NCBI GenBank assembly: GCA_016287765.1
Contig: JAEEWS010000008.1
Location: forward strand, 1 to 64,000
Direction: 5' to 3'
DNA from: Lachnospiraceae bacterium
GTDB taxonomy: Bacteria; Bacillota_A; Clostridia; Lachnospirales; Lachnospiraceae
DNA: 64,000 bases
In this document: in pieces, positions 4,118 to 57,028 of the stretch
Layout of the letters: each line of letters starts with the position of its first letter
Position numbering within the stretch: the stretch's first letter is position 1
Made by a program: the position numbers and the translations under genes
Notes under the pieces: model-generated
The model's input: only the letters and a program-made list of their open reading frames with translations
Told to the model about the DNA's origin: nothing
Database searches by the model: none

Positions 4118-4768
4118 ATGGCAACGGAATCCAAACTTTTTGACCCTGAAGGGCCCTTGATGACCGGCTTTGACACGGTTAAAGATCTGATAACTCTCAA
4201 TCTGCTCACGATAATCTGTTCTATCCCGGTAGTAACCATAGGCGCATCCTTTACGGCCATGCATTATACGGCTCTTAAAATGGTGAGGAACGAAGAAGGC
4301 TATATACATAAGACTTTTTTCAAGTCCTTTAAGGAAAATCTGAAGCAGGGCATAGGAGCTACCTTTATCATGGCTTTTGCCTTCGGATTTATAGGCCTTG
4401 ACTTTTGGGCAACACAGTGGTTTCAGGAGGATCCGGGCTTTGTAAAAGCGGCAATTGTACTCTTGATCCTTATGGCGGCGGTAACGATAACCACCGTGAC
4501 TTTTTTCTTCCCTGTCCAGGCAAAACTCAGTGCGACCCTTAAGCAGAATATTTCAAATGCGTTTAAGATGGCACTTTCCCATTTTCCCATGACATTACTC
4601 ATGATATTGTTTGATCTTTTACCCTTTATTATATGTTATTTCCTGCATTTCCTTATTCCCTTGCTTTTCATCTTCGGATTTTCTCTTCCCGCTTTTTGGG
4701 ATGCCAAACTTTACAATAAGATATTCATTAAAATAGAGGAGGCTGCACATGCAGGGAAGGATATTTGA
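4118..4768 (+). CDS. DUF624 membrane protein (YesL/YesV-like)
   Basis: A 216-residue integral membrane protein with about four or five hydrophobic segments. It has the DUF624 hallmarks: a start in which FDPEGPLMTGFDTVKDLITLNLL leads into CSIPVVTIGASFTAMHYTALKMVRNEEGYI, then KSFKENLKQG, and a central FFFPVQAKL segment. The family occurs in Firmicute carbohydrate loci (YesL and YesV in B. subtilis) and its function is unknown. A GAAAGGAAAT site precedes the ATG. It overlaps the next gene, a paralogue, by 20 bases, so the two are translationally coupled and may form a heteromer. Confidence 0.85.
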   Translation: MATESKLFDPEGPLMTGFDTVKDLITLNLLTIICSIPVVTIGASFTAMHYTALKMVRNEEGYIHKTFFKSFKENLKQGIGATFIMAFAFGFIGLDFWATQWFQEDPGFVKAAIVLLILMAAVTITTVTFFFPVQAKLSATLKQNISNAFKMALSHFPMTLLMILFDLLPFIICYFLHFLIPLLFIFGFSLPAFWDAKLYNKIFIKIEEAAHAGKDI

Positions 4769-5387
4769 TTACGGCGGACCTTTATTCGGCTTTTTAAACA
4801 CCTTTGCCAATATCATAGTTTTGAGCGTGGTTACCCTTGTGTGCTGTATCCCGGTGATCACCTTCGGACCTGCGGTAAGGGCTTTGTACGTCGTATGTCT
4901 TAAGATGGTCAGAAACGAAGAGAGCTATGTGGTAAGGGACTTTTTTAAGAGCTTTAAGTCCAATTTCGGACAAAATGTGTTCCTTGGTCTTTTAGTGCTT
5001 TCGGCCCTTGGAATCTTTGGCGGCGGACTGTATTCGTTGATACTGATAGGCGGAGCGTTTCATATCATAATAAAGATCGGCTTCGGAATGGCTGCTTTGA
5101 TAGTGATAGCCACCATTCTATGGATCTTTCCCATGCAGAGCCGTTTTAAAAACCCCATTAAACAGACTGTTAAGCTTTCCTTTTGGCTGGCGGTCACCAG
5201 GTTTCCCAAAACATTTCTGATGCTCATCATCTGGCTTTTTATACCGGCCTGTGTAGTCTTCATATCAGGTAACTTCGTCCCTCTGGTATTTCTGGCTGAG
5301 CTGGGAACGGCGGCCTATTTCTGCGCCGAAGTCTATGACGGCCTTTTTAAGGAACTGGAAGATAAGATCAACGGTAACGGAGAATGA
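4749..5387 (+). CDS. Second DUF624 membrane protein
   Basis: A 212-residue paralogue of the preceding protein with the same architecture: FDYGGPLFGFLNTFANIIVLSVVTLVCCIPVITFGPAVRALYVVCLKMVRNEESYV, then KSFKSNFGQN and a central WIFPMQSRF segment. Four or five membrane segments are visible. The start codon lies inside the upstream gene behind a GAGGAGG site, giving a 20-base overlap. The two stop 8 bases short of a convergent AraC regulator. Tandem DUF624 genes beside a regulator and transport genes suggest an accessory role in sugar uptake or sensing, but this is inference. Confidence 0.85.
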   Translation: MQGRIFDYGGPLFGFLNTFANIIVLSVVTLVCCIPVITFGPAVRALYVVCLKMVRNEESYVVRDFFKSFKSNFGQNVFLGLLVLSALGIFGGGLYSLILIGGAFHIIIKIGFGMAALIVIATILWIFPMQSRFKNPIKQTVKLSFWLAVTRFPKTFLMLIIWLFIPACVVFISGNFVPLVFLAELGTAAYFCAEVYDGLFKELEDKINGNGE

Positions 5388-5395
5388 TCATTATC

Positions 5396-6523
5396 CTATT
5401 CCGGTTTGTTTAAGCGGTAATTTCTTCTGTAGTTTTCCGGCGTTATGCCGAATTCATTCTTAAATACGTTTTGAAAATGTGACTGACTCTTCATCCCTAT
5501 TGCCTGGGAGATGGCGGAGACAGTCATTTTTTCGTCTCCCTGAAGGAGGCGGAGAGCAGTCTCAAGTCTCTTTTCTTTCAGATATTCCGTGAAATTCATT
5601 CCCATGTTTTTTTTAAACAGTCGGCAAAGGTAGGCATCGGTAAGATCGAAGTGGGCCGCAGTCTCCGAAAGAGATACGGTACTCAGGTTTTCGGAAATGT
5701 GGTTTAATATCTCCCTCATATTTCTTTGCTCACGTTCCGAGGCGGGGATACGCATGAAATTATCCCTGTACTTGGTGACGGAATCGGCAAAGAGCCTCAT
5801 GAGACCGGCGCATCCGTTGACATCAAAAAGAAGGTCGAAGATGTTTTTCTTTGCAAAGGAAAATTCATAGTTCTGTTTGGTGAAAAACAGCTTAAACACA
5901 GTGAGCATTTCTGCCGCATAGGCTATGATCCCGTTGTAATCGTAGGCATCACCGTTGTCGAACAGATTTGTGAAGTTTTGTTCCTGCCGGGAGAGATAAT
6001 CTATGACCCGGTCATATTTTTTCTCGACGAGATCATCATAGAGGAGTGAAGGCAGATCAAAAGGGAAGGTTGTCCTGCTGTCGTTCAGGCGGTGGAGTAG
6101 GGAACCGGTATAAGGTACGGCAGAACCCAGGATATATCCGTATTTTACCGCTTCCATGAGAAATACCGTTTCTTCGGACACCTTCCTTCTGTCCTGAAGA
6201 CCCTCGGAATAACAGACATAGGAACGGTTTTTCCGGGATATGGTATACATGGTCTGGCGAAGGGATCCCACAAAGGCACGGATACTGAATACGGCTGAAT
6301 CGTAATTAAGGAAGCATACTATCAGAGTTCCTGATTTTTCGCAGTAATGGTTAATATAAGAGGCTGACATCAGATTGGAACAGGCAGTGAGGACTTCATT
6401 GATCTCGGCCTCGGACGGTGTCTCTCCCTGCCGGTTTTTTATGGCTGTGATTATTATGGAATAGTCGGGAAATGATCCTTCCGCAAAAAGATCGTTAAGG
6501 CTGGTTTTGGTAAAATTGAACAA
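5396..6523 (-). CDS. AraC-family transcriptional regulator
   Basis: A 375-residue soluble protein. Residues about 278-372 form the AraC double helix-turn-helix: MREILNHISENLSTVSLSETAAHFDLTDAYLCRLFKKNMGMNFTEYLKEKRLETALRLL, then the second helix-turn-helix MTVSAISQAIGMKSQSHFQNVFKNEFGITPENYR. The N-terminal 270 residues are a sensor or dimerisation region without a clear cupin or membrane segment. The start is a TTG at 6523 (minus strand) with a GGAGGT site 7 bases before it; no better ATG is available in frame. It is divergent from the 983-residue binding protein gene, which it probably controls through the shared intergenic region. Confidence 0.85.
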   Translation of the reverse strand: MFNFTKTSLNDLFAEGSFPDYSIIITAIKNRQGETPSEAEINEVLTACSNLMSASYINHYCEKSGTLIVCFLNYDSAVFSIRAFVGSLRQTMYTISRKNRSYVCYSEGLQDRRKVSEETVFLMEAVKYGYILGSAVPYTGSLLHRLNDSRTTFPFDLPSLLYDDLVEKKYDRVIDYLSRQEQNFTNLFDNGDAYDYNGIIAYAAEMLTVFKLFFTKQNYEFSFAKKNIFDLLFDVNGCAGLMRLFADSVTKYRDNFMRIPASEREQRNMREILNHISENLSTVSLSETAAHFDLTDAYLCRLFKKNMGMNFTEYLKEKRLETALRLLQGDEKMTVSAISQAIGMKSQSHFQNVFKNEFGITPENYRRNYRLNKPE

Positions 6524-6760: not shown

Positions 6761-9712
6761 ATGAAAAAGATCAAAGGCGGCTTTTCGGATAATTTAAAAA
6801 AAGTGATTGGCCTTTCTCTTGTTACCGCCATGACGATAACAAGTTTACCTTTTTCCCTTTCCCCGGCATTTGCTGCCGAAGGACAGGCTTTGAAGGATAA
6901 ATATATTGAATTTGACGGTCGCGACATTGATTGGAAGTACTCCATCGGTGAAAATGTCCTTTCATATTCCCAGACAAAACAGAATTATGCCGGCGTAAAG
7001 GCTGCCGAGAAGGAGATCGATGTGGATCTTTCTTCCGTATCCGATGTGAACGGCAGGATGAAGACCGTGGAATATGACGGAAGGACCGTTATCCTCAACG
7101 ATCTGGACGGAGAGTATATTGAGTTTAATATAAACGTTCCGGAGGATGCGGTTTACGGCTTTGAGATCGATTATCATATGGCCGGCACGGATTCAAGTGC
7201 AGCCAAGAGAAATCTTTTTATAGACGGAGAGTATCCCTTTACGGAAGCCTCCGATCTGGTGTTCTACAGATATTTCTGTGACGATGGTGAACCCATATTA
7301 AACAGTATAGGAGATGAGACCAGACCGAGACAGAAGGAGATTACCGGCTGGAGGACTCAGGGACTTAAAGATACCACCGGTATCTCTCCTGAGGATTACA
7401 GGATCTTCCTTGCTAAAGGAGCTCACACCGTAAAGTTTATGGCTTCCGGCGGTGATATGTACATATCCGCCATCCGTTTTACCGTTCCCGAGATCATAAA
7501 GACCTATGCGGAGGTTGAGGCTGAGTACAAGGCTAAGGGCTATAAGAATGTGAATTGCGAAAAGATCACCTTTCAGGCAGAGACCACAGCTGTAGAAAAG
7601 AACTCCACCACCTTAAGACGTGAGAATGACGGCGATCCCCTGGTAGAGCCTGCATCGGGCACCAGCAGACGCCTGAACGTTATAGGCGGTTCAAAATGGA
7701 GATACGGTAATCAGAGCATCACATGGGAATTTGAGGTTCCCGAAGACGGACTTTACAAGATAGGTTTATACGAGAAGCAGGCATGGAATGACGGCCTTCC
7801 TTCATACAGACAGATAATGATCGACGGCAAGGTACCGTTTGAAGAACTCAGCGCTTATAAATTTGAGTTCACGGGCGGCACCAAGTGGATAGTAAATCAG
7901 TTGGGACCCGAAGACGGAGATCCTTACAGATTCTACCTCACCAAGGGTAAGCACACCATCACAATGACGGTGAAGATGGGCAGCTTCGGCCCCATCATAG
8001 AATCCCTCAAGCAGGATATCACAGTGCTTTCCGATGTTATCCTTGATATCACCATGATCGCGGGAGCCAGCCCCGACCCCAACTATGATTACGGATTCTT
8101 TGAAAAGATCCCCGATCTTGAGGAAAATCTTAATTATCTGATCGACAGTCTTCAATACAAATACGAGCTGGCAAACAGCATGTCGAAAAAAACATCTGCT
8201 ATGGCAAATAACTTCCTGGCGGTTCAGGAAGACATCAAAGCTATGGTGGAAGATCCCTTCGTTATCGCAAAAAGATTTTCGCTTCTTGAGGATAACCAGA
8301 ACAAGCTCTCCGAATATTACCAGAACATTCAGTATCTGATGCTGGTGGTAGATGAGTTCTACGTTGGCAGTCCCGATGAAGAGTGGAAGAGTGTTTCTTC
8401 CAACTTCTTCCAGAGGTTCGGAGTTACCGTAAGGCAGTTCCTGCTTTCCTTCACAAAGGATTATGACAACATAGGAAGTGTACTTTCGGAGAATACGGTG
8501 GTTACGGATACTATCGATGTCTGGATCGCAAGAAGCACCGAATATGCCGAGATCATTAAGCAATTGGCGGATGAGACCTTTACTCCCGAACATGGAATAG
8601 CCATCAATGTAAACGTACTTCCGTCATCACAGCTTGATGCCGGACAGGTAAATGCCATCATGCTTGCCATCACTTCGGGGAAGGCTCCCGACGTGGCCCT
8701 GGGTGTGGATATCAAATCCCCTGTTGAATTCGCTATCCGCGATCAGGTATATGACCTTTCCAAAATGGACGGCTTTAACAGCATGAAGGGTAATTTTGTG
8801 GATGCCATATTCACTCCCTACATATATCGGGGCGGCATCTATGCCATACCTGAGACCATGAATTTCAATGTCCTTTTCTACAGAAAGGATATCCTTAATA
8901 ATTTCGGCATAGATCTGCCCGATACATGGGACGATCTGTATGAATATGTTCTTCCCGCTCTTTATCAGAACGGACTTGAATTCTACTTTGGTCGTGAATT
9001 CAGTCAGTTCCTTTTCCAGAACGGAGGAGAATACTATACGGAAGACGGCCTCAGATCTGCGCTGGATACTCCGGAAGCCTATAAGGCGTTTAAGGAGTAT
9101 ACGGAGCTGTTCACAAACTACGGCGTGGACAAGACAGCCAATTTCTATCAATATTTCCGCTCCGGCCTCATGCCTCTCGGTGTTGCCGATTTTAACACGT
9201 TCATGCAACTTTCGGCAGCTGCACCTGAGCTGGCCGGAAAGTGGGGCATAGTTTCCCTTCCCGGTCATCTTAAGGCTGACGGAACCATTGACAGGACCGC
9301 AGGCGCCATCACTCAGACCGGCGATGTCATCCTGAAGCAGTCCGATAAGCCTGAAGAGAGCTGGAAATTCCTTAAATGGTGGACAAGCACGGAGACTCAG
9401 ACTCAGTTTGCGAAGGAAGTCGAAGCTACCATCGGTACGGAAGCAAGATGGAACACCGCAAACAAAGAAGCGTTTTTGAATCTTTCCTGGAGCAGGGAAG
9501 ACATTGCTGCTCTTAAAGAGGAATGGAGCTTTGCGAAAGAAACTCCTTACGTTCTCGGCGGCTATATGACGGAACGTCACCTGACCAATGCATGGACCAG
9601 CGTTGTAATGAGCGGTATGGATGTAAGAGAAGCCCTCGAGAGAGCGGTTAAAGATATAAACAGAGAGTTACGAATGAAACAGGAAGAGTACGGGGTAAAG
9701 ACCAATGAGTAA
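6761..9712 (+). CDS. Very large extracellular solute-binding protein with N-terminal lectin-like domains
   Basis: A 983-residue secreted protein, about twice the usual length of a family 1 sugar-binding protein. Residues 1-39 are a Sec signal ending in SPAFA-AE, with no lipobox cysteine. Residues roughly 45-250 and 260-430 are two beta-rich regions resembling galactose-binding or lectin-like modules (GEYIEFNINVPEDAVYGFEIDYH; QSITWEFEVPEDGLYKIGLYEKQ), each ending in a KGAHTVKF or KGKHTITM strand. Residues about 430-580 look helical. The substrate-binding domain runs from about 580 to 960 (SGKAPDVALG, YAIPETMNFNVLFYRKDIL, TWDDLYEY). A GGAGGAAC site precedes the ATG. It overlaps the next permease gene by 8 bases. 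The ligand is unknown; RG-I oligosaccharide is inferred from context. How it stays at the cell surface is unclear. Confidence 0.85.
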   Translation: MKKIKGGFSDNLKKVIGLSLVTAMTITSLPFSLSPAFAAEGQALKDKYIEFDGRDIDWKYSIGENVLSYSQTKQNYAGVKAAEKEIDVDLSSVSDVNGRMKTVEYDGRTVILNDLDGEYIEFNINVPEDAVYGFEIDYHMAGTDSSAAKRNLFIDGEYPFTEASDLVFYRYFCDDGEPILNSIGDETRPRQKEITGWRTQGLKDTTGISPEDYRIFLAKGAHTVKFMASGGDMYISAIRFTVPEIIKTYAEVEAEYKAKGYKNVNCEKITFQAETTAVEKNSTTLRRENDGDPLVEPASGTSRRLNVIGGSKWRYGNQSITWEFEVPEDGLYKIGLYEKQAWNDGLPSYRQIMIDGKVPFEELSAYKFEFTGGTKWIVNQLGPEDGDPYRFYLTKGKHTITMTVKMGSFGPIIESLKQDITVLSDVILDITMIAGASPDPNYDYGFFEKIPDLEENLNYLIDSLQYKYELANSMSKKTSAMANNFLAVQEDIKAMVEDPFVIAKRFSLLEDNQNKLSEYYQNIQYLMLVVDEFYVGSPDEEWKSVSSNFFQRFGVTVRQFLLSFTKDYDNIGSVLSENTVVTDTIDVWIARSTEYAEIIKQLADETFTPEHGIAINVNVLPSSQLDAGQVNAIMLAITSGKAPDVALGVDIKSPVEFAIRDQVYDLSKMDGFNSMKGNFVDAIFTPYIYRGGIYAIPETMNFNVLFYRKDILNNFGIDLPDTWDDLYEYVLPALYQNGLEFYFGREFSQFLFQNGGEYYTEDGLRSALDTPEAYKAFKEYTELFTNYGVDKTANFYQYFRSGLMPLGVADFNTFMQLSAAAPELAGKWGIVSLPGHLKADGTIDRTAGAITQTGDVILKQSDKPEESWKFLKWWTSTETQTQFAKEVEATIGTEARWNTANKEAFLNLSWSREDIAALKEEWSFAKETPYVLGGYMTERHLTNAWTSVVMSGMDVREALERAVKDINRELRMKQEEYGVKTNE

Positions 9713-10655
9713 GAAAAAAGTGGTTATTGCCGAAAACAGCCTTTATAAGAACTACACGAAGTGGCAGCGTTTTAAGAAATTCTGGCACAAGAACTGGATG
9801 GGATACGGGTTTATGGCCCCCTTCGTTATCCTTTTCGTTGTTTTCGTTGTAGCTCCGGTGTTCACTGCAATAGGCTTGAGCTTTACAGATTACAACATGA
9901 TGCAAAAGCCCGATTTTGTCGGCTTTAACAACTACAAGCTCCTTTTCCTTGATGATGATGTATTTAAGATCTCTATAGCAAACACGGTTAAATTTGCGGT
10001 TATCACAGGCCCTGCGGGATATCTCCTTTCCTTCTTCGCAGCCTGGGTGATAAATCAATTGAAGGCAAAGAGAGCGTTTGCCCTTGCCTTCTACGCACCC
10101 TCCATTCTTTCCGGCGTGGCCATGTCCAATGTCTGGCTGGTCATCTTCTCCGGCGATAAGAGAGGTATCATCAACTATTGGCTCATCCAATGGGGCATCA
10201 TAGATGAACCCATACTTTGGAACACAGACCCCAACCACATCATGGGAGTTGTAATGTTCATTCAGTTGTGGATGAGCATGGGTACCGGCTTCCTGGTATT
10301 CCTGGCAGGTCTGCAGAACATGGACAGATCTCTTTATGAGGCAGGTGCCATTGACGGTGTAAAGAACAAGTTCCAGGAACTGTTCTATATCACCCTTCCA
10401 GCCATGAAGCCTCAGCTTTTGTTCGGTGCCATCAATACCATCACAAGTTCCTTTGCGGTGTTCGATATTGCGGTAAACGTTGCCGGAATGCCCAGCCCGA
10501 ACTATTCGGCGCACACCATTGTGGCTCACCTTTACGATTACGCGTTCATACGATTCCAGATGGGTTACGCATCAGCCGTAGCCGTGGTGCTCTTCCTTGT
10601 TACCTTTATTCTCGGTAAGGTCGTTATGAAGGCACTTTCCTCCAGGGAAGAATAA
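9705..10655 (+). CDS. Sugar ABC transporter permease (UgpA/LplB type)
   Basis: A 316-residue protein with six predicted membrane helices, beginning at WMGYGFMAPFVILFVVFVVAPVFTAIGLSFTDY. The binding-protein-dependent transporter signature is LYEAGAIDGVKNKFQELFYITLPAMKP near residues 206-232 (EAA loop, contacts the ATPase). Overlap of 8 bases with the upstream binding protein indicates coupling. It pairs with the following permease gene to form the membrane channel. No ATP-binding subunit is encoded nearby, which is common for this importer class in Firmicutes because one multitask ATPase serves many systems. Confidence 0.9.
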   Translation: MSKKKVVIAENSLYKNYTKWQRFKKFWHKNWMGYGFMAPFVILFVVFVVAPVFTAIGLSFTDYNMMQKPDFVGFNNYKLLFLDDDVFKISIANTVKFAVITGPAGYLLSFFAAWVINQLKAKRAFALAFYAPSILSGVAMSNVWLVIFSGDKRGIINYWLIQWGIIDEPILWNTDPNHIMGVVMFIQLWMSMGTGFLVFLAGLQNMDRSLYEAGAIDGVKNKFQELFYITLPAMKPQLLFGAINTITSSFAVFDIAVNVAGMPSPNYSAHTIVAHLYDYAFIRFQMGYASAVAVVLFLVTFILGKVVMKALSSREE

Positions 10656-10701
10656 AAAAAGCCTTGGAAAGATCAGACTGACAAAAAGAGAGGAACATGT
10701 A

Positions 10702-11568
10702 ATGATAAAGATAAAATGGTTTAAGGGACAATGGTTGCATATAACCTTCGGCAAAACGTTGTTGTACATCGTTATGCTTGCTCTTGTAGCCTTCACTGCA
10801 CTGCCCCTGGTTTATGTTGTTGTAACGGCGTTTAAACCTCTGGATGAGTTGTTTGTTTATCCTCCCAGGTTTTATGTTAAGAACCCCACAACACAGAACT
10901 TCTCGGACCTGGTGGTTTCCCTGGGAAGTTCCACGGTGCCTTTTACGAGATACATATTCAACAGTATTTTGATCACCATAGTGGTAGTAATGCTCACGGT
11001 CATCGTTTGCTCACTTGCAGCCTACTCACTGGTCAAGTTTAAGCCTAAGGGAGGCAAGGTGCTCTTTGACCTTATCCTTGTAGCCCTTATGTTCTCGCCC
11101 CACGTTACCAAGATACCCAGTTACCTGATCATTAACGGTCTGAACATGGTAAATACCTACTGGGCATTGATCCTTCCCAGCATAGCGGTGGCATACAACT
11201 GCTTCCTTATGCGACAGTTCATTCAGCAGTATCCCGATGAGCTCATCGAGGCTGCAAGGATCGACGGAGCGGGAGAGTTCAAGATCTTCATTAAGATGGT
11301 TATGCCGGCTCTTGCACCGGCTTGGTCCACATTAGTTGTTTTCTCCTTTGTAAGTAACTGGAATGATTACTTTTCACCTCTTATTTACATCACCAGCCAG
11401 GCAATGAAAACCCTTCCCCTCGCCTTAAAGACGATCGGAACGGGTATTGCCCGTGCGGGTGCCATGAATGCGGCTTCACTTCTTACGGCAGCACCTACGA
11501 TCATTCTTTTTACGATCATGCAGGGCCATGTCATGGAGACTATGACTTATTCGGGAATTAAAGGTTGA
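10702..11568 (+). CDS. Sugar ABC transporter permease (UgpE/MalG type)
   Basis: A 288-residue permease with six predicted helices. It has an N-terminal helix with ALPLVYVVVTAFKPLDELFVYPP, typical of the MalG/UgpE branch, and the EAA loop DELIEAARIDGAGEFKIFIKMVMPALAPA near residues 178-206. A GAGAGGAAC site lies before the ATG. It follows the first permease by 46 bases and precedes the NHL-Yip1 gene by 16 bases, so the whole block is one transcription unit. Confidence 0.9.
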   Translation: MIKIKWFKGQWLHITFGKTLLYIVMLALVAFTALPLVYVVVTAFKPLDELFVYPPRFYVKNPTTQNFSDLVVSLGSSTVPFTRYIFNSILITIVVVMLTVIVCSLAAYSLVKFKPKGGKVLFDLILVALMFSPHVTKIPSYLIINGLNMVNTYWALILPSIAVAYNCFLMRQFIQQYPDELIEAARIDGAGEFKIFIKMVMPALAPAWSTLVVFSFVSNWNDYFSPLIYITSQAMKTLPLALKTIGTGIARAGAMNAASLLTAAPTIILFTIMQGHVMETMTYSGIKG

Positions 11569-11584
11569 TGAGCAGGAGGAAAAT

Positions 11585-13765
11585 ATGAGATCAATCAAAA
11601 AAATCGGTATTTGCCTGCTGGCTGCGTTGATAACAGTATCGGGAACCGCAACAAATGCGGTTTATGCTGCAAATACAGGATCGTCTTTAAGTTATGTTAC
11701 GGGAGATGACAATGGCAGACAGCCGGTACCGGAATGTTACATCATATCGGATACGATCTATAACCTGGGTGATTTTGAGGGAAAAGCCGGCAGTAAGACG
11801 GCCAAGACCTTTAACAGCCCTCAGGATCTTTTTATAGACGACAACGATAACATCTATGTTGTTGATACGGGAAACAACAGGATCGTCAAGTTCGACAGCG
11901 AACATAAACCCGTAGGAGTGTTTGAAGGGCCGGATAAGGCTTTCAAAAAGCCTCAGGGTATCTTTGTTGATAAAGACGGCGATATGTATGTGGCCGACAC
12001 CGATAACAACAGGATCGTTCATATGGGAAGTGACGGTGCGCTGGTCGAGGTTTTCACCAATCCCGAAAGCAGCCTTTCCACAGGCGATGTTTTTTCACCT
12101 TCAAAACTCATCATCAATGACACGGGTTACATTTACGTTATCCGCGGTGAAAATATCATGGCCATAGACGGAAACGGCACCTTCAGAGGTTACTACGGTC
12201 AGACCAACATCGGCTTCAGCCTTACGGATCTTCTGATCAGAATGTTCGCTTCGGAACAGCAGAAGCGGTTTGTTGCCAAGAGACTTGCATCCTCTTATAT
12301 AAACCTTACATACGGTGATGATGGAATGATCTATGCCACCAGTATGGAAAGAGAAGAGGGTGAGATCAAGAAACTCAATTCCATCGGTACCAATATATAT
12401 CGAAAATATAAGACCATCGGCAATTCCTTACAGAATCCCATCACTGCCTGGATAAACAGAGCTCTCAAGTCTGTGGTTGCCGGCAGAAGCTTCAGGTTCG
12501 GTGAATACTTTGATGATGAAGGCATGTACATGGAACCTTTGTTCATGGACATATGCGTTGACAATGACGGCATCGTGACCATAATCGAGCGACTGAACGG
12601 AAGAGTTTATCAATATGATCAGGACGGAAGGATGCTTGTGGCCTTCGGCGGTCAGGGTAAAAAGAAGGGTACTTTCCAAAGCCCCATTGCCATTGATGTG
12701 GACAGCAAGGGAAATCTTTATATCCTCGATCAGAACGACAACAGCATTCAGATCTTTGAACCTACGGAATTCATACAGAACATACATGACGCCACCTCCA
12801 CCTATAACAACGGTGATTATCAGGCGTCCTATGAGCTTTGGAGAAAGGTGCTTGCCACAGATGAAAACTATGATCTGGCACACGTAGGTATAGCCAATGC
12901 TTATTACAAGCAGGGCAAGTATAAGGAAGCAATGGAAGAAGCCAAGATCGTCGGCGACAGAGATGTTTACACTCTGGCCTTCGATGAATACAAGTATGAA
13001 GTCCTTCGGGCTCACTTTTTCCCCATTGTCCTTTTGGCACTGGCCATCGTGCTGGGGGTTATCTTCTTTGTCAAGTTTTTTGTAAAGCATGCAAAGAACG
13101 GTTATTGGAAATTCCTGAAGGAAAAGAACAAGAAGATGACTGTGGGATCGGGACTCATGTACTCCTTCTATGTTATCTTCCATCCGATCGATGCTTATGA
13201 AGGCCTAAAGAATAACAGAGACAGGATCAATCCTGTAGTCCCTTTCATCATCCTTACAATAGCTTACGCAGTCAGGATCGCATATCTTTACATAGTGCAT
13301 TTTCCTCTTGCTTCTATGGAGAAGGAGAATATCAACCTTTTGATTGAACTTGCGAAGTTGTGGATCGTTCCCCTTTCCTGGATTCCCGCTTCATTCATGG
13401 CAACGAGTATTTCCGGCGGTGAAAGTAAGACCAGGGAGATCACCTTTGCTTCGGCAACTTCACTCACACCCTACATCGTTATCATGACACCGCTTATGTT
13501 CCTGTCAAACGTAATGTCCAAGACACAGCAGTCCTGGTACGGACTGTTTGAGGTGCTTGCCACTGTAGGAATGGTCCTGCTGATGTTTGCCGCAATGATG
13601 GCATTAAACAATTATACCTTCGGTAAGACCTTGAAGATGATGTTTGTATCTGCTTTTCTCATGGCTGTTTTGTGGCTGGTAATGCTGCTTTGCTACGTGT
13701 TGACGGGAAGAATGATACAGTTCGTTTTGCAATTGCTTGAAGAATTCAGACTCAATTTCCTGTGA
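11585..13765 (+). CDS. NHL-repeat, TPR and Yip1-domain membrane protein
   Basis: A 726-residue protein with an unusual architecture. Residues 1-29 are a Sec signal peptide (VYAA). Residues about 60-395 are NHL beta-propeller repeats (FNSPQDLFIDDNDNIYVVDTGNNRIVKFD; FKKPQGIFVDKDGDMYVADTDNNRIVHM; FQSPIAIDVDSKGNLYILDQNDNSIQIF). Residues about 400-465 hold TPR-like helices (YQASYELWRKVLATDENYDLAHVGIANAYYKQGKYKEAMEEA). A membrane helix lies at about 476-500, and a Yip1-like bundle of four or five helices fills 530-720. The propeller and TPR should be outside the membrane. I recall YIP1-annotated genes next to DUF5696 genes in sugar ABC loci of Firmicutes, but no function is established. It is preceded by AGCAGGAGGAAAAT and is embedded between permease genes, so it is probably a transporter-associated component. 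Confidence 0.8.
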   Translation: MRSIKKIGICLLAALITVSGTATNAVYAANTGSSLSYVTGDDNGRQPVPECYIISDTIYNLGDFEGKAGSKTAKTFNSPQDLFIDDNDNIYVVDTGNNRIVKFDSEHKPVGVFEGPDKAFKKPQGIFVDKDGDMYVADTDNNRIVHMGSDGALVEVFTNPESSLSTGDVFSPSKLIINDTGYIYVIRGENIMAIDGNGTFRGYYGQTNIGFSLTDLLIRMFASEQQKRFVAKRLASSYINLTYGDDGMIYATSMEREEGEIKKLNSIGTNIYRKYKTIGNSLQNPITAWINRALKSVVAGRSFRFGEYFDDEGMYMEPLFMDICVDNDGIVTIIERLNGRVYQYDQDGRMLVAFGGQGKKKGTFQSPIAIDVDSKGNLYILDQNDNSIQIFEPTEFIQNIHDATSTYNNGDYQASYELWRKVLATDENYDLAHVGIANAYYKQGKYKEAMEEAKIVGDRDVYTLAFDEYKYEVLRAHFFPIVLLALAIVLGVIFFVKFFVKHAKNGYWKFLKEKNKKMTVGSGLMYSFYVIFHPIDAYEGLKNNRDRINPVVPFIILTIAYAVRIAYLYIVHFPLASMEKENINLLIELAKLWIVPLSWIPASFMATSISGGESKTREITFASATSLTPYIVIMTPLMFLSNVMSKTQQSWYGLFEVLATVGMVLLMFAAMMALNNYTFGKTLKMMFVSAFLMAVLWLVMLLCYVLTGRMIQFVLQLLEEFRLNFL

Positions 13766-13792
13766 TCGTCGGGGAATTAAAGGAGAGATTTT

Positions 13793-16186
13793 ATGCTTAG
13801 AAAGTTTTTAAACAGAATAAAGGGTTTCTTCAAGAACCTTCCTGCAAGGCTGAAACGCTGGTGGAAGGGTGAGATGATGGACTTCAAAAGAAAAACGGCT
13901 ACCTTTCCGGACGATTTTAAAGCCTGGGCAAAGAGCAAGATAGGCTCAGCTGTTGTTCTTGTGATCCTGGCGATATTCATTATCGTCGGAATGAATGCGA
14001 TAAAGAAGGCAAGACTTAATGCCATTGTCTTTGTGGATGATTATGAGGCTCCGGAAGCTACAGTTAATCTTTTTTCGGCAGGAGAATTCGTACCGGTTGC
14101 GAAGAACGATAAGCTGGAACTGCTTTTTTGCGAAGAAAAAGGTGCTATCAAGGTTAAAGATCTGCAAAACGGTTTCGTCTGGAGCTCCATCGTTGATGAA
14201 GAGATCTGTGATATAAGCGGATATAAAAAGTCACAGCTCAGAGAAATGCAAAATGCTCTGACAGTTTCCTACTACGATCTTAAAAAGCGTGATTCAAAGG
14301 TTCAGGAACTTCTTGCCAGCAAGGACTGCGGAAGTCTTGAAGTGGAATACATTGACAACGGCATATCCTTAACCTACGGCTTTCTGAAGAGGGGTATCTA
14401 CGTAAATGTGGAATACTTCCTTGACGGCGATAACCTGGTGGTAAGGGTTCCCTGGGAAAAGATCGAAGAAAAGACCAAATATGCCGTTTCTTCGATCAAG
14501 GTGGTACCTTATTTCGGAGCATGTGACAACACTTCCGACGGTTATCTTTTTTACCCTGACGGCTGTGGGGCTATCACCTGCTTTGACAGGGCTGACAGAC
14601 GTAATTCCAATGTATCTGTGGCCCAGTACTATACCTACTCGGACAGAATTGTTCAGATGCAGAAATTCTTTTCCGAGAACATGAAACGCTATGTGGCTTA
14701 TATGCCTGTTTTCGGTATAAAGAACGGAAATAATGCCCTGCTGGCTTTCGCTACCGAGGGCGCGGCAAACACAGGTATCACCGTATCACCTGCTGGAACG
14801 AGCATGCTGGCGATAAACCGTATCTGCTTTGATATCTTTACAAGAAATATATTTAACGTAAGTCTGGGAACAGCAGCGGCCGGAGATTCGAGTGCATCGG
14901 GTGCGGTCATACAGCGTGTTGACAAATATCTGATCCATGAGGACAAGGAGATAAGGTTTGCTTTTCTCAACGGAGACAAAGCCGATTATTCAGGTATGGC
15001 TGCCGTGTACAGAGATTACCTTATCGAAAACGGTCTGCTGCATGATGTGATCACCGAAGAGGAAGACTATCCCGTGGCATTGAGGATGCTGATGGGAACC
15101 ACCAAGGCGGGAGTTGCTTTTGACGAATACATTGCCATGACTACCTTCGGACAGGTCAGAGATATGCTGGAAGAACTGGAAAGCATGAAGGTTTCGTCAC
15201 AAAAAGTGGTCCTTGATGAGTGGTGCAGAAAAAGCGAAGACTATAACTATTGGGGGCCGGAAGGTCGTCTTGGAGGAAAAAGCGGGCTTAAAAAGCTTGG
15301 AGCTTACGCAGAAGAAAACCCCGGAACAGACATTTTCCTGCAGCAGTCCACAGCGTTGTGTACGGCCGACACAAAAGGGATCAAGGAAGCAAAGGATGTT
15401 GTTTACGACGGCCTTGCGGTTGAGGTTTCCATTGACATGTATAAGGTGGGAATGACCTATCTCCTTAATCCCGCCGTTATCCTGAAACGTAACGGAGAGA
15501 TGCTTAAAAAGCTTAAGAGTTACGATGGCATCGACATTGCCTATGATAATCTGGGAAAGTTTGTCTACGCGGATTACAATGAAAATCATCCCTATACCAA
15601 GAATGAAAGTGTTACCGAGCTCAGAAATGTTCTTAAAGAGACCAAAGAGAAAGACAAAAACATCGCTGTCAGCGGCTCAAACCAGTATGTTTTCTCTTAT
15701 GCCGATTATCTTTACGAACTGAGCGAGAATTCATACGGACTTGCAATTACGGACTTTTCGGTTCCCTTCGTACAGATGGTTGTTTCCGGCTGTATCCCCT
15801 ATGCTACACAGGGGGCCGGAAATCTGGCCTACGACATGGACATACAGAAGCTTAAATGGATCGAATTCGGTTCGATCCCCTACTTCCGTGTAACACACGA
15901 ATCGGCTCTGAATCTCAGAGATACGGACCATGATATGCTTTTCAGCTCCACCTGGGATGATTGGAAATCGACCATTGCCGATACCTATTCGGAATTCAAA
16001 GAGAATCTGGGATGTGTATACGGAAAACAGATGATCGAACACAGGATCATTTCAGACCGGTTATATGCAGTCACATACGAGAACGGCGTAAAGATCTATA
16101 TAAACTACGATAAAAACGAAGCGCACATCGACGGATTAACCATCCCGGCAAAGGGATATGTGGTTACGGGAGGTTCTTCAAAGTGA
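13793..16186 (+). CDS. Membrane-anchored DUF5696 protein, glycosidase-like
   Basis: A 797-residue protein. Residues 1-49 are basic and cytoplasmic, one helix at about 50-68 (SAVVLVILAIFIIVGM) spans the membrane, and the remaining 730 residues are extracellular. The region about 450-700 alternates strands and helices like a TIM barrel (VVLDEWCRKSEDYNYWGPEGRLGG; GIDIAYDNLGKFVYADY; YGLAITDFSVPFVQMVVSG), and the end (RLYAVTYENGVKIYINYDKN, LTIPAKGYVVTGG) resembles the C-terminal beta sandwich of some glycosidases. Naming as DUF5696 is from memory. Enzymatic activity is inference; conserved acids such as Asp and Glu in LDEWCR or Asp in AYDNLG are candidates only. AAAGGAGAGA precedes the ATG; the 3' end overlaps the next permease by 4 bases. 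Confidence 0.7.
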   Translation: MLRKFLNRIKGFFKNLPARLKRWWKGEMMDFKRKTATFPDDFKAWAKSKIGSAVVLVILAIFIIVGMNAIKKARLNAIVFVDDYEAPEATVNLFSAGEFVPVAKNDKLELLFCEEKGAIKVKDLQNGFVWSSIVDEEICDISGYKKSQLREMQNALTVSYYDLKKRDSKVQELLASKDCGSLEVEYIDNGISLTYGFLKRGIYVNVEYFLDGDNLVVRVPWEKIEEKTKYAVSSIKVVPYFGACDNTSDGYLFYPDGCGAITCFDRADRRNSNVSVAQYYTYSDRIVQMQKFFSENMKRYVAYMPVFGIKNGNNALLAFATEGAANTGITVSPAGTSMLAINRICFDIFTRNIFNVSLGTAAAGDSSASGAVIQRVDKYLIHEDKEIRFAFLNGDKADYSGMAAVYRDYLIENGLLHDVITEEEDYPVALRMLMGTTKAGVAFDEYIAMTTFGQVRDMLEELESMKVSSQKVVLDEWCRKSEDYNYWGPEGRLGGKSGLKKLGAYAEENPGTDIFLQQSTALCTADTKGIKEAKDVVYDGLAVEVSIDMYKVGMTYLLNPAVILKRNGEMLKKLKSYDGIDIAYDNLGKFVYADYNENHPYTKNESVTELRNVLKETKEKDKNIAVSGSNQYVFSYADYLYELSENSYGLAITDFSVPFVQMVVSGCIPYATQGAGNLAYDMDIQKLKWIEFGSIPYFRVTHESALNLRDTDHDMLFSSTWDDWKSTIADTYSEFKENLGCVYGKQMIEHRIISDRLYAVTYENGVKIYINYDKNEAHIDGLTIPAKGYVVTGGSSK

Positions 16187-17151
16187 AAAAAACAGCTGAA
16201 AATAAAAAAAGGAAGATCAAGATAACCCTGGAAAGACGAAATCAGTTGAAAGGGCTGGTATTTGTACTGCCTTTCATCATCGGTGTTTTATGCTTCTTTC
16301 TGTATCCCATCCTGTTTTCCGTCAGACTCAGCTTTGCTACCGATATCAAGATAATCGGCATGAAGCTTTCCGGATGGAACATAGAGTACTATAAAAAAGC
16401 TTTCATTGTAGATACGAATTTCCTTCCGGAATTTAAGAACACTGTGGTGTTCACACTTACGAAATTCCCGCTTACCATCATACTTTCACTGATCATTTCG
16501 ATCCTGCTTAACAATAAGATAAAGGGAAGAGGATTTTTCAGAGTTATATTCTTCATTCCTTTTCTTTTGGGAAGCGGGGAGATCATGAAGCAGATCCTGA
16601 ATCTGGGTGTTGAAAGGGCAGTGCTCAACGTTTCGGATGGAAAACTGATCCCTTACAACGTTCTGAGCTATTTCGGACCCACGGTCATGGACACTGTGTT
16701 CAATGTTTTCGGTAACCTTGTAAGTATCCTGTGGGGCTGCGGTGTTCAGATCCTGCTTTTCCTGGCCGGGTTACAGAGCATTTCACCTTCCCTGTATGAA
16801 GCCGCAAAGATCGACGGAGCCACCGAGTGGGAGATATTCTGGAAGGTAACTGTTCCCATGATCTCGCCCATGATGCTGTTGAATATAGTTTATACTCTGG
16901 TTGATTCTTTTACAAGTATCGACAATACCCTTTTGCAGTATATAAGGACTTACGGTTTCAACAATAACCAGTTCCAGTATGCTGCAGCCATGGGCTGGGT
17001 ATACTTCCTGTTTATAGGCATCGTTGTCGGTATCGCTTTCGGAATAATGAAGAAATATATGCACACAAATGAGATCGAGGAGGTAAGAAAACGTGAGCGC
17101 AAACACAAGGTCTTCACAATTGAAAAAGCTCCCAGACGAACTTTTGAGTAA
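16183..17151 (+). CDS. Sugar ABC transporter permease (UgpA/LplB type), second pair
   Basis: A 322-residue permease with six predicted helices, from GLVFVLPFIIGVLCFFLYPILFSVRLSFA onwards. The EAA loop is SLYEAAKIDGATEWEIFWKVTVPMISPMML near residues 203-232. The start is a GTG overlapping the stop of the DUF5696 gene (GTGA, 4-base overlap), indicating translational coupling. A basic cytoplasmic tail (VRKRERKHKVFTIEKAPRR) follows the last helix. It belongs to the second permease pair of the operon. Confidence 0.88.
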   Translation: MKKTAENKKRKIKITLERRNQLKGLVFVLPFIIGVLCFFLYPILFSVRLSFATDIKIIGMKLSGWNIEYYKKAFIVDTNFLPEFKNTVVFTLTKFPLTIILSLIISILLNNKIKGRGFFRVIFFIPFLLGSGEIMKQILNLGVERAVLNVSDGKLIPYNVLSYFGPTVMDTVFNVFGNLVSILWGCGVQILLFLAGLQSISPSLYEAAKIDGATEWEIFWKVTVPMISPMMLLNIVYTLVDSFTSIDNTLLQYIRTYGFNNNQFQYAAAMGWVYFLFIGIVVGIAFGIMKKYMHTNEIEEVRKRERKHKVFTIEKAPRRTFE

Positions 17152-18235
17152 TCTTTCTCTGAGATTCAGACTGTTTAAAAGAAAGTATTCCAATCCCACA
17201 AGTTACAAGCGTTTGTTTGTCAGGATAGTTATGTATCTTCTGGTCATGGGGCTGGCATTTGTATTTGCTTATCCTTTTCTGTACATGCTTGTTACATCGC
17301 TGATGTCAAACTCCGACCTTAACAGTTCATCCGTAAACTGGCTGCCTACGGAATTCAAATTTGAAAACTTTACTCTGGCTTCAAACCTGATAAACGGCAA
17401 GCAGGCAGTAAAACTGACTTTCCGTGAATTTATCGATAAGTCTCTTGCGAACGGAGAGGAACTGAGCACTTTCAAACTGTTTACACAATGGGTCAACAAT
17501 AATATCGGCAACAAAAAATATATTGTCAATTCGGCTTTTGTTACTGTATTCGCCACTTTCGGGCATGTTATAGCCTGCTCTTTTATAGGCTATGGATTTG
17601 CGAGATATCGTTTTCCTTTAAAGAAGGTCTTGTTTGCCCTGGTCATACTTGCGTTCATTGTGCCCACTCAGACGATCATCATCCCGTCCTATCTTATGTA
17701 TTCGAATGTGAAGCTGAACGGAGCCAGCCTGATAAACACCTATGTTCCGCTGATCCTTCCCACATTCTTCGGGTTCGGCCTCAGGGGAGCGCTTTACATC
17801 TTCCTGTTCCGACAGTTTTATATGACTGTTCCCAGGAGTCTTGAAGAAGCGGCAAGGATAGACGGCTGCGGCTTCATGAAGACCTATTGGAAGATCGTAT
17901 TCCCCCTGGCAAAGGCTACACTGGTAGTGGCAATCGTTCTTTCCATTGTTTGGCACTGGAATGATTCCTATGAACCGAGCATATACGTGAACAGTCCCAG
18001 CAAGCAGTTCCTGCCGCCCCGTATAAATGCGATCATCACTGCTGCCAACGCTCTTCCCGAACAGCAGCAGGAGCTTATGAGACAGCTTGGTCTTGAGGAC
18101 GGTGAAGATACACTTAACGATGCGGTCGTTATGGCAGGGGCAACTATAATCAGTGCACCTGTCCTCATATTCTTTGCATTTGCTCAGAGTCAGTTCATGC
18201 AGGGTATTGAGCGATCCGGTATCACCGGTGAATAG
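17093..18235 (+). CDS. Sugar ABC transporter permease (UgpE/MalG type), second pair
   Basis: A 380-residue permease, longer than the usual 275-300 because of an N-terminal cytoplasmic extension of about 40 residues and an extra 60-residue segment (ASNLINGKQAVKLTFREFIDKSLANGEELSTFKLFTQW) between helix 1 and helix 2. The EAA loop is SLEEAARIDGCGFMKTYWKIVFPLAKATL. The start is GTG at 17093 behind a GAGGAGGT site, overlapping the previous gene by 59 bases. The inserted region probably faces outside and could contact the binding protein or the DUF5696/NHL components. Confidence 0.85.
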   Translation: MSANTRSSQLKKLPDELLSNLSLRFRLFKRKYSNPTSYKRLFVRIVMYLLVMGLAFVFAYPFLYMLVTSLMSNSDLNSSSVNWLPTEFKFENFTLASNLINGKQAVKLTFREFIDKSLANGEELSTFKLFTQWVNNNIGNKKYIVNSAFVTVFATFGHVIACSFIGYGFARYRFPLKKVLFALVILAFIVPTQTIIIPSYLMYSNVKLNGASLINTYVPLILPTFFGFGLRGALYIFLFRQFYMTVPRSLEEAARIDGCGFMKTYWKIVFPLAKATLVVAIVLSIVWHWNDSYEPSIYVNSPSKQFLPPRINAIITAANALPEQQQELMRQLGLEDGEDTLNDAVVMAGATIISAPVLIFFAFAQSQFMQGIERSGITGE

Positions 18236-18260
18236 CTCCGGTTTGTTATTTACGGTAACT

Positions 18261-18284
18261 ACGCGCTGTGCGTTGTTATATAAT
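18261..18284 (+). promoter_or_regulatory. Possible internal promoter and small hairpin before the binding protein gene
   Basis: A TATAAT lies at 18279-18284, 28 bases before the start codon of the binding protein gene, but the -35 position (TAACTA) is poor. A small ACGC/GCGT hairpin at 18261-18273 precedes it. Either could raise the amount of binding protein relative to the permeases. Confidence 0.3.
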
Positions 18285-18311
18285 TCAAAAATTTGAATGG
18301 AGGAAAGAATT

Positions 18312-19979
18312 ATGAAGAAACTCAACAAAGTTCTTGCGCTTGCGCTGGCAGCTTCTATGGTAGTAAGCCTTGCCGCATGTGGCAAAGACAAGAACGAGTC
18401 AGCCGGAAAGACGGCTTCAACACCTACTCCCGCGACAGTTGCCAAGGCAACTTCCACACCTACTGTCACACCTACTCCCGCTCCTCTTAAGATCACAGTA
18501 TCTCTGCCTTCCGATGATGAGCATCTTGAAGCTAACGAGTGGTACGACAAGATGGTTGCAGCGATCAATGATTACACAAACATGGACGTGACCTACGAGT
18601 GGAGTGATATCTCCACATACTATGATGATGAGCATCTCGGCCTCAAGCTTTCTACCGCCGATGTGGCTGATGTTCTTGTAGTAGGTCCTACAGATGCATT
18701 CTATAAGGCAGCTGAAGAAGGACTTTTCTGGGATCTCGCTCCTTATCTTAAGGACTATGACAACCTGGCATGCATCCCTGAGACAGATATCCTTGCAAAC
18801 ACAAAGAACGGCAAGATGTTCGGTATTCCCCGTTCAAGAAACCTCGGACGTGCAGGAATGGGTTATCGTCTTGACTGGTTGAACAAGCTTGGTCTTGATG
18901 AGCCTACAACATGGGCAGCTTACAAGGAAATGCTCCGTGCATTTACCGAAAACGATCCCGACGGAAACGGACTCAACGATACAGTAGGTCTCGGCCTTGA
19001 TAAGTGGGATGTTGCCTGGGACATCATGGGACTTTGGTTCGGCGTTCCCAACAGATGGGGCATTGATTCCAAGGGAGATCTCGTTTTCAAGATCAATACT
19101 CCCGAATACAAGACATTCCTTAAGGAAATGAAGGAACTCTATTCCAAGGGTTACATCAACAACGGATCCATCGAAGGTATTCCTGATTTCACAGAGATCA
19201 ATGCAGGTAGAGCACACAATACACTTACAAAGGCTGAAAAGTCCGGCGCTTCCGTACAGGTTCTTGACGATTGCCGTAAGGTTGAAACAAGCTTAGAGGC
19301 TACATACGGCGAGCCTGATTCCGAAGAAGATCTTATGTACACTCTTGCAAGCGGTGTTGATACCGGTTTGGGTCTTCGCACCTATCCTTGGGGCGCTGCT
19401 GCTTCCAACTGTGTAGCTATCTCCACCATCAATATCAAGACAGAAGCTCAGCTTCGTCAGGTACTTCAGTTCCTGAACGATCTTAACGACGGCGAGATGC
19501 TTAACCTTATCGATTACGGTTTCAAGGATGTTACATGGCATGTAACCGACGAAGAGAACAAATATCTCGAAATGTATGACGCTGACACCATCAGTGCCAA
19601 CCTTAACGGAGCTTCCGAGAAGTTCAGAAACGGTTTCAACCAGATCCTCGGTTACTACACGGCAGATGCTAACGCAAGAGAGTATATCGTTGCTCCTTCA
19701 GAGGCACCTATCAGAGTACTTGAGAACAGACTTTACACAGAGAACCTTGATTATCTTGTTCCCAACTACGGTCTTGCATATGAAAGCTCAACCGCTACAT
19801 ACAACACCGAAGGTCTTATCAGCCAGCTTAATACAATGGTATGGGATTCTCTCGTATCATATGTTAAGGGTGAGATCGATGACTCCGGTCTTGCAGAATC
19901 CATAAACCAGTGGAACAAGGCAGGCGGCGCTCAGCTTACAAAGGAAATGAACGAGCTTTATCATAAGGCCGGCAAGTAA
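18312..19979 (+). CDS. Sugar-binding lipoprotein of an ABC importer
   Basis: A 555-residue extracellular solute-binding protein. The signal peptide ends in the lipobox SLAAC with lipidated Cys23, followed by a Thr/Pro-rich linker (TPTPATVAKATSTPTVTPTPAP). The mature part is of the LplA/YtcQ type, with a PRSRNLGRAGMGYRLDWLNKLGLDEPTTW segment and a DPDGNGLNDTVGL loop. The ATG at 18312 has a GGAGG site 9 bases upstream; the in-frame ATG at 18297 is part of that site. It follows the second permease pair and ends the operon before a strong terminator. It is paralogous to the protein at 25024-26565. Confidence 0.9.
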   Translation: MKKLNKVLALALAASMVVSLAACGKDKNESAGKTASTPTPATVAKATSTPTVTPTPAPLKITVSLPSDDEHLEANEWYDKMVAAINDYTNMDVTYEWSDISTYYDDEHLGLKLSTADVADVLVVGPTDAFYKAAEEGLFWDLAPYLKDYDNLACIPETDILANTKNGKMFGIPRSRNLGRAGMGYRLDWLNKLGLDEPTTWAAYKEMLRAFTENDPDGNGLNDTVGLGLDKWDVAWDIMGLWFGVPNRWGIDSKGDLVFKINTPEYKTFLKEMKELYSKGYINNGSIEGIPDFTEINAGRAHNTLTKAEKSGASVQVLDDCRKVETSLEATYGEPDSEEDLMYTLASGVDTGLGLRTYPWGAAASNCVAISTINIKTEAQLRQVLQFLNDLNDGEMLNLIDYGFKDVTWHVTDEENKYLEMYDADTISANLNGASEKFRNGFNQILGYYTADANAREYIVAPSEAPIRVLENRLYTENLDYLVPNYGLAYESSTATYNTEGLISQLNTMVWDSLVSYVKGEIDDSGLAESINQWNKAGGAQLTKEMNELYHKAGK

Positions 19980-20045
19980 TAGGTTTTAAAGAGTTTTGAA
20001 TTAACAGCATAAAGGCGTTTTTAACGACAGAGTGCTAAAAGTACC

Positions 20046-20087
20046 ACAGACACACGGGCTTTTACAGTCCGTGTGTCTGTTTTTTTG
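20046..20087 (+). terminator. Strong intrinsic terminator
   Basis: A perfect 12-bp stem (20046-20057 with 20069-20080) with an 11-base loop is followed by seven T residues. It closes the 6.8-20.0 kb transport operon. Confidence 0.92.
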
Positions 20088-20127
20088 TTTTAATTCCCTC
20101 ACTTCTCCAAAACAAAAGGAAAAAAAG

Positions 20128-34827: not shown

Positions 34828-34846
34828 ACGGAGCGTGGATCATATT

Positions 34847-35776: not shown

Positions 35777-35781
35777 TGTTT

Positions 35782-35798
35782 ACCTGCATAGTGCAGGT
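35782..35798 (+). other. Small hairpin between permease and binding protein genes
   Basis: A perfect 7-bp stem (ACCTGCA, 35782-35788, with TGCAGGT, 35792-35798) closes a 3-base loop. It has no strong T-run. It may stabilise the downstream binding-protein message after processing, or cause weak attenuation. Confidence 0.4.
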
Positions 35799-35842
35799 TT
35801 ACATATCGTGACTACACACGAAAATACAGGAGGAAAATATTT

Positions 35843-42624: not shown

Positions 42625-42635
42625 GAGGATATTTA

Positions 42636-56987: not shown

Positions 56988-57028
56988 TTTCTATTACCAC
57001 GCTATGTGGTTTGGAGGTCAAGAGAAAT

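What the first reader, a model, noticed from the sequence alone, without database searches (positions are those of the whole stretch)
6761..18235. Importer operon with two uncharacterised extracellular partners (NHL-TPR-Yip1 and DUF5696)
A giant binding protein, permease pair 1, an NHL-propeller/TPR/Yip1 membrane protein, a membrane-anchored DUF5696 protein and permease pair 2 are coupled by overlaps or short gaps (8, 46, 16, 27, -4 and -59 bases). Placing two non-transport proteins between two permease pairs suggests a single surface complex that captures, perhaps trims, and imports large oligosaccharides. The family names come from memory; the complex is inference.
Basis: partly seen in the sequence, partly recalled or inferred. 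Interest (0 to 1): 0.75.

Follow-up and report, generated by a model that had tools for sequence, protein, structure and literature searches.

The report
Sugar importer with two extra subunits
Two odd surface proteins, one of them shaped like a sugar-cutting enzyme that has probably lost its cutting residues, sit beside one particular pair of sugar-channel genes in nearly every genome neighbourhood examined, so they are probably unrecognised parts of a widespread bacterial sugar importer.

Summary
The gene order is real. Window 6761-19979 is a packed run of eight genes: giant binding protein, P1a, P1b, NHL-TPR-Yip1, DUF5696, P2a, P2b and the lipoprotein SBP2, followed by a strong terminator-like hairpin at 20046-20080.

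Surveys support the core idea but change its shape. In 80 named loci NHL/Yip1 is directly upstream of DUF5696 in 79 of 79 with DNA there, and P2a directly downstream in 79 of 79. In 47 places from 299 genomes the counts are 44 of 45 and 43 of 43, but P1b lies upstream in only 20 of 40. So the two odd proteins go with permease pair 2. Residual coevolution mostly agrees, with three exceptions.

Best reading: an ABC importer variant with two extra membrane subunits. No biochemistry exists.

The parts
6761..9712 (+). Giant solute-binding protein (983 aa), SBP domain in the C-terminal part; first gene of module 1
   Evidence: PDB relative 5ysb (Lin1841) 7.4e-14
9705..10655 (+). Permease P1a (module 1)
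   Evidence: BPD_transp_1 1.6e-12; conserved EAA-type loop
10702..11568 (+). Permease P1b (module 1)
   Evidence: BPD_transp_1 7.3e-16; conserved EAA-type loop
11585..13765 (+). NHL propeller - TPR - Yip1-type membrane protein (726 aa), core gene 1
13793..16186 (+). DUF5696 protein (797 aa), N-terminal anchor at about residues 52-70, GH129-type fold, N586 and S627 in place of the catalytic Asp and Glu; core gene 2
16183..17151 (+). Permease P2a (GTG start), core gene 3
   Evidence: BPD_transp_1 1.7e-7; conserved EAA-type loop
17093..18235 (+). Permease P2b (GTG start), core gene 4
   Evidence: BPD_transp_1 2e-15; conserved EAA-type loop
18297..19979 (+). SBP2, lipoprotein-type solute-binding protein; likelier start ATG 18312
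   Evidence: PDB relatives 6fth 6.7e-13 and AlgQ2 2.7e-7; sequence
20046..20080 (+). Intrinsic-terminator-like hairpin (15 pairs, T run) that closes the unit
5396..6523 (-). Divergent AraC-family regulator, a possible regulator of the unit
   Evidence: HTH_18 7.8e-22; the role is inferred from position

Best explanation
The unit encodes two importers. The core of the finding is the second: NHL-TPR-Yip1 + DUF5696 + P2a + P2b, served by the lipoprotein SBP2. It is a carbohydrate ABC importer with two extra, nearly inseparable membrane-anchored subunits. DUF5696 is a tethered protein with a GH129-type glycosidase fold that has usually lost the catalytic acids; it probably holds a glycan chain beside the channel and does not cut it. 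NHL-TPR-Yip1 is probably the docking subunit: propeller and TPR outside, toward DUF5696 and SBP2, and the Yip1 domain against the permeases, as the Yip1-family protein YknW does in another ABC complex. SBP2 hands the oligosaccharide to P2a/P2b, powered by an ATPase encoded elsewhere. The giant SBP with P1a/P1b is a companion importer that usually travels with the core but can be missing or moved. Shown: genes, order, conservation, modularity, fold, missing catalytic pair. Inferred: physical complex, glycan binding, hand-over, shared ATPase. In this window the substrate is probably rhamnogalacturonan I.
For: Adjacency: 79 of 79 and 79 of 79 in 80 named loci; 44 of 45 and 43 of 43 in the 299-genome survey; of 43 NHL-Yip1 places of 260 bits or more, 42 have DUF5696 in the same fetched stretch and the other (L162) is cut by a contig end (counted by hand). 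Core without P1: 17 of 40 places. Residual coevolution within the core: NHLYip-DUF5696 0.32, NHLYip-P2b 0.26, DUF5696-P2a 0.24, NHLYip-P2a 0.22, each 0 of 2000 permutations. GH129-type fold. Catalytic Asp in 60, Glu in 28, both in 5 of 133, while W477, N630, Y632 and N677 are kept in 119 to 132 of 133. N-terminal hydrophobic segment in 128 of 129. EAA-type loops kept in all four permeases. Yip1-family YknW is needed by an ABC pump (PMC4887032 passages). RG-I enzymes downstream.
Against: No interaction or binding data. Cross-module signals: SBPgiant-DUF5696 0.23 (0 of 2000) and P1b-NHLYip 0.16 (2 of 2000); DUF5696-P2b is weak, 0.11 (25 of 2000). All 17 places without P1 come from two unnamed families, so the split may be few events. 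The catalytic Asp is still present in 60 of 133, and 5 keep both acids. The authors of DagB, an active relative, state that it shares only Asp435 of NagBb's two catalytic residues (PMC5698469 passages), so lack of the Glu alone does not prove inactivity. Exceptions to the order: L127, L152. No ATPase among 40 window ORFs scanned.
Confidence: 0.55

Rival explanations
1. One reading: giant SBP, both permease pairs, NHL-Yip1 and DUF5696 form one surface complex that acts on the same large oligosaccharide.
For: Seven-gene order in 64 of 64 named loci with room; residual coevolution SBPgiant-DUF5696 0.23 and P1b-NHLYip 0.16.
Against: P1 module not in the fetched stretch in 17 of 40 places, downstream in 3, divergent in L078; P1a shows no residual coevolution with DUF5696 or NHLYip (0.02, 0.03).
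Confidence: 0.17
2. DUF5696 is an active, membrane-bound glycosidase or a related enzyme that trims oligosaccharides at the channel mouth, perhaps with a changed catalytic set.
For: GH129-type fold; Asp kept in 60 of 133, both acids in 5; the active relative DagB has its own set of acidic residues (PMC5698469 passages).
Against: Neither column acidic in 39 of 133; both in only 5; window N586 and S627; in the 23 sequences of the RG-I group the Glu is kept in 1.
Confidence: 0.13
3. NHL-TPR-Yip1 and DUF5696 are sensors that report glycan at the importer and control uptake or gene expression, with no part in moving the sugar.
For: Outward propeller plus membrane domain; AraC regulators near the operon; a histidine kinase beside one cassette, L041.
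Against: The tight link is with permeases P2a/P2b and not with one regulator type; AraC hits are scattered in position and absent from many listed loci.
Confidence: 0.12
4. The core works in the other direction, exporting or anchoring a surface glycan.
For: YknW, the studied Yip1-family partner, serves an efflux pump.
Against: P2a/P2b are BPD_transp_1 permeases like UgpA/E and MalF/G, lie beside a solute-binding lipoprotein and often beside polysaccharide-degrading enzymes.
Confidence: 0.03

Closest known systems
YknWXYZ of Bacillus: Yip1-family YknW with an ABC efflux pump (passages of PMC4887032)
   Same: A Yip1-family membrane protein as accessory subunit of an ABC complex; there it modulates assembly and the pump depends on it.
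   Different: Efflux pump with a MacB-like permease and a membrane-fusion protein; no NHL-TPR part, no DUF5696, no binding protein.
GH129 alpha-N-acetylgalactosaminidase NagBb and GH129-like DagB (PDB 5wzn, 5opq)
   Different: DUF5696 is membrane-anchored, sits in a transport operon, and keeps the Asp and Glu together in only 5 of 133.
Alginate importer with binding proteins AlgQ1/AlgQ2
   Same: SBP2 is related to AlgQ2 (2.7e-7), a binding protein for large oligosaccharides (the role is recalled).
   Different: No Yip1 or DUF5696 partner is known to me in that system (recalled).
MusEFGK2I maltose importer with the extra membrane protein MusI (recalled; only search listings seen)
   Same: A sugar ABC importer with an additional integral membrane protein.
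   Different: MusI is a DUF624 protein, another family than Yip1; two DUF624 genes lie at 4118-5387, below the MusI cut-off.

Membership tests
Carbohydrate ABC importer (binding-protein-dependent) | Two permeases with BPD_transp_1 domain and EAA-type loop | tested here: met
   for both pairs (that the loop is the ATPase contact is recalled)
Carbohydrate ABC importer (binding-protein-dependent) | Solute-binding protein | tested here: met
   giant SBP; SBP2 by PDB relatives
Carbohydrate ABC importer (binding-protein-dependent) | ATPase subunit | tested here: inconclusive
   no ATPase among 40 window ORFs scanned; the window's assembly is not held, so a shared ATPase could not be sought
DUF5696 (PF18952) | Score over Pfam cut-off 25.6 | tested here: met
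   470.3 bits, 1.3e-140
GH129 glycosidase | Fold: beta-sandwich plus TIM barrel plus C-terminal domain | tested here: met
GH129 glycosidase | Catalytic Asp (NagBb D435) | tested here: not met
   window N586; Asp in 60 of 133 cassette members
GH129 glycosidase | Catalytic Glu (NagBb E478, role recalled) | tested here: not met
   window S627; Glu in 28 of 133
Yip1 (PF04893) | Score over Pfam cut-off | tested here: inconclusive
   no match by the window protein at E 0.1; 16 of 16 split homologues match at E 0.01 or better; 2 of 120 listed homologues carry PF04893
YknWXYZ-type transporter | Membrane-fusion protein YknX and MacB-like permease YknZ | tested here: not met
   none among the unit's genes by Pfam
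MusI (NF052431), for the upstream DUF624 genes | Score over curated cut-off 160 | tested here: not met
   119 and 122.7 bits

The most novel reading that the evidence does not exclude
A widespread, undescribed class of ABC importer in which a catalytically dead GH129-fold protein is an obligate, membrane-tethered glycan receptor and an NHL-TPR-Yip1 protein docks it to the channel, so that these bacteria hold polysaccharide ends at the pore, a functional parallel to SusCD. One genome can carry several versions for different polysaccharides.
Probability: 0.42. Interest if true: 0.8.

Novelty: new variant of a known kind. Interest (0 to 1): 0.64.

Why it matters
26 of 299 genomes drawn from the phylum carry DUF5696 over the cut-off, several of them in more than one place (only the best few candidates per genome were scored, so copy numbers are lower bounds). 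Polysaccharide-degrading enzymes often lie beside the cassette (10 of 20 neighbouring proteins scanned are glycoside hydrolases). Where sources name the two proteins, in the best 120 hits listed for each, they write names such as hypothetical protein, DUF5696 domain-containing protein, SMP-30/gluconolactonase or YncE-type propeller, none as a transporter part. If they are importer subunits, current models of Gram-positive glycan uptake lack two parts, and single-gene deletions can test this directly. A glycosidase fold reused as a receptor in transport would also be a clear pseudoenzyme case.

Tried and rejected
Rejected: DUF5696 as an ordinary GH129 enzyme. Rejected: chance neighbourhood. Rejected: a degenerate second permease pair. 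Set aside: low-scoring NHL hits, with short matches, which I take for other propeller proteins; two were fetched, L160 (117 bits) and L161 (158 bits, at a contig end), and show no DUF5696; the rest were not checked.

Limits: ORFs are mechanical. The 80 named loci are the best of 456 relatives of one pattern, hence close kin; the 299-genome survey is fairer, but the tool scored at most 3-4 candidates in each genome. 'Absent P1' means not detected (P1b) in the fetched stretch, which reaches 4.0 to 7.1 kb upstream in those 17; L118 has a P1a-like fragment at its far end and L142 a weak giant-SBP-like fragment. Coevolution used 82 thinned loci of the 90 with all seven genes, out of 138 held (80 named, 58 fetched), with simple distances; shared ancestry is not fully removed. 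The catalytic counts use 133 proteins of 690 residues or more; shorter and cut ones were dropped. The barrel-end position of W477, N630, Y632 and N677 is read from the secondary structure, not from coordinates.
Full report
What is there. Window 6761-19979 holds eight tightly packed + strand genes: giant solute-binding protein, permeases P1a and P1b, NHL-TPR-Yip1, DUF5696, permeases P2a and P2b, and SBP2. SBP2 is a lipoprotein-type binding protein (likelier start 18312) with PDB relatives 6fth (6.7e-13) and AlgQ2 (2.7e-7). A 15-pair hairpin with a T run follows at 20046-20080. The PL11 ORF 20032-22548 overlaps it, so its start is probably the ATG at 20128. Further on lie a PL11-type and a PcRGLX-type rhamnogalacturonan lyase, a GH88-family protein, a GDSL protein, a lacto-N-biose-phosphorylase-type protein, an FGGY kinase and L-rhamnose isomerase. 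RG-I is therefore the likely substrate of this copy (inference from these families).

Named genomes. A scan of one genome per species with a DUF5696 alignment found 456 relatives; the tool kept the best 80. NHL/Yip1 is directly upstream of DUF5696 in 79 of 79 loci with upstream DNA, and P2a directly downstream in 79 of 79 with downstream DNA; one locus ends just upstream and in L061 DUF5696 is cut. The seven-gene order holds in 64 of the 64 loci with enough flank. Titles name Lachnospiraceae, Oscillospiraceae, Paenibacillus, Cohnella and one Spirochaetes MAG, among others. In that MAG (L078) the giant SBP and P1 pair are on the opposite strand; its flank was too short to count among the 64. 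NHL-TPR and Yip1 are one gene in 45 loci, two adjacent genes in 29, undetermined in 6.

A fairer sample. Of 299 genomes drawn evenly from the phylum, 26 have DUF5696 over the cut-off, in 47 places. All 47 neighbourhoods were fetched. NHL/Yip1 is directly upstream in 44 of 45 with room (exception L127) and P2a directly downstream in 43 of 43. With 8 more DUF5696 stretches found through NHL hits the counts are 51 of 53 and 50 of 50; in L152 NHL-Yip1 comes after P2b. P1b lies upstream in 20 of 40 places with at least 3.8 kb upstream; in 3 of the other 20 the module is downstream, and in 17 P1b is not in the stretch. Those 17 all come from genomes of two unnamed families, f69 and f84, which also hold copies with the module (for example L125 and L140). 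From the other side, 42 of 43 NHL-Yip1 places of 260 bits or more have DUF5696 in the fetched stretch; L162 is cut by a contig end (counted by hand). The unit that stays together is NHL-TPR-Yip1, DUF5696, P2a, P2b.

Coevolution. For 82 loci with all seven genes, pairwise distances were compared after regressing out the mean of the other five genes, with 2000 permutations (a first run without permutations is). Module 1: SBPgiant-P1a 0.34, SBPgiant-P1b 0.27, P1a-P1b 0.49. Core: P2a-P2b 0.43, NHLYip-DUF5696 0.32, NHLYip-P2b 0.26, DUF5696-P2a 0.24, NHLYip-P2a 0.22 (each 0 of 2000), DUF5696-P2b 0.11 (25 of 2000). Between modules: P1a-NHLYip 0.03, P1a-DUF5696 0.02, P1a-P2a -0.06, P1a-P2b -0.04, P1b-DUF5696 -0.01, P1b-P2a 0.05, P1b-P2b 0.02, SBPgiant-P2a 0.00, SBPgiant-P2b 0.10 (85 of 2000). 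Against strict separation: SBPgiant-DUF5696 0.23 (0 of 2000), P1b-NHLYip 0.16 (2 of 2000), SBPgiant-NHLYip 0.12 (52 of 2000).

Mechanism. DUF5696 holds a chain, NHL-TPR-Yip1 couples it and SBP2 to P2a/P2b, and P2 imports; the P1 module is a second importer. EAA-type loops are kept in all four permeases. No ABC ATPase occurs among 40 window ORFs scanned, so a shared one is inferred. Linkage, fold, residue loss and modularity are shown; complex, binding and hand-over are inference.

Range. Twenty large neighbouring ORFs from 20 cassettes, picked by hand from the list, were scanned: 10 are glycoside hydrolases (GH78-type, GH106 twice, GH35, GH26 with CBM27 and CBM6, GH3 twice, GH42, GH5-type, GH28); the others gave a histidine kinase, ricin-type lectin, HEAT repeats, SLH with DUF4901, CARDB, beta-helix or weak hits, and 2 gave nothing. 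The architecture is thus not confined to RG-I.

Novelty. In the held open-access library no paper contains 'DUF5696', none holds both 'NHL repeat' and 'sugar ABC transporter', and of 7 papers with 'YIP1 family protein' and 'ABC transporter' none looks to be about sugar import, judged from titles and the starts of abstracts. Subscription papers are mostly not held, so an earlier description cannot be excluded.

Noticed in passing
window 20032-22548: The first start of the PL11 ORF overlaps the terminator-like hairpin at 20046-20080; the ATG at 20128 is a likelier start, so the lyase is probably a separate transcript.
   Followed up: partly
window 4118-5387: Two overlapping DUF624 genes, MusI-like but below the MusI cut-off, sit before the divergent AraC gene.
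   Followed up: no
window 33883-37507: A further permease pair with a possible binding protein (20% identical to SBP2 in a three-sequence alignment) downstream of the lyases: a third importer in one cluster.
   Followed up: no
window 40471-45186: Lacto-N-biose-phosphorylase-type protein followed by an FGGY kinase and rhamnose isomerase: fits phosphorolysis of a galactosyl-rhamnose unit from RG-I (inference).
   Followed up: no
L014-L016: Soluble DUF5696 relatives very like NagBb, with the catalytic pair intact, in genomes of the same family or order.
   Followed up: partly
genome G007: Eleven DUF5696 matches in one 3.0-Mb genome, ten over the cut-off (one of them a contig-end fragment).
   Followed up: no
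L127, L152: Exceptions to the order: no NHL-Yip1 within the 1.0 kb upstream on a 6.3-kb contig (L127); NHL-Yip1 after P2b (L152).
   Followed up: no
window 57011-58147: Protein joining an NT5C nucleotidase domain and a guanylate kinase domain.
   Followed up: no
L125:14022-17114: A 1030-aa HEAT-repeat protein beside a cassette.
   Followed up: no
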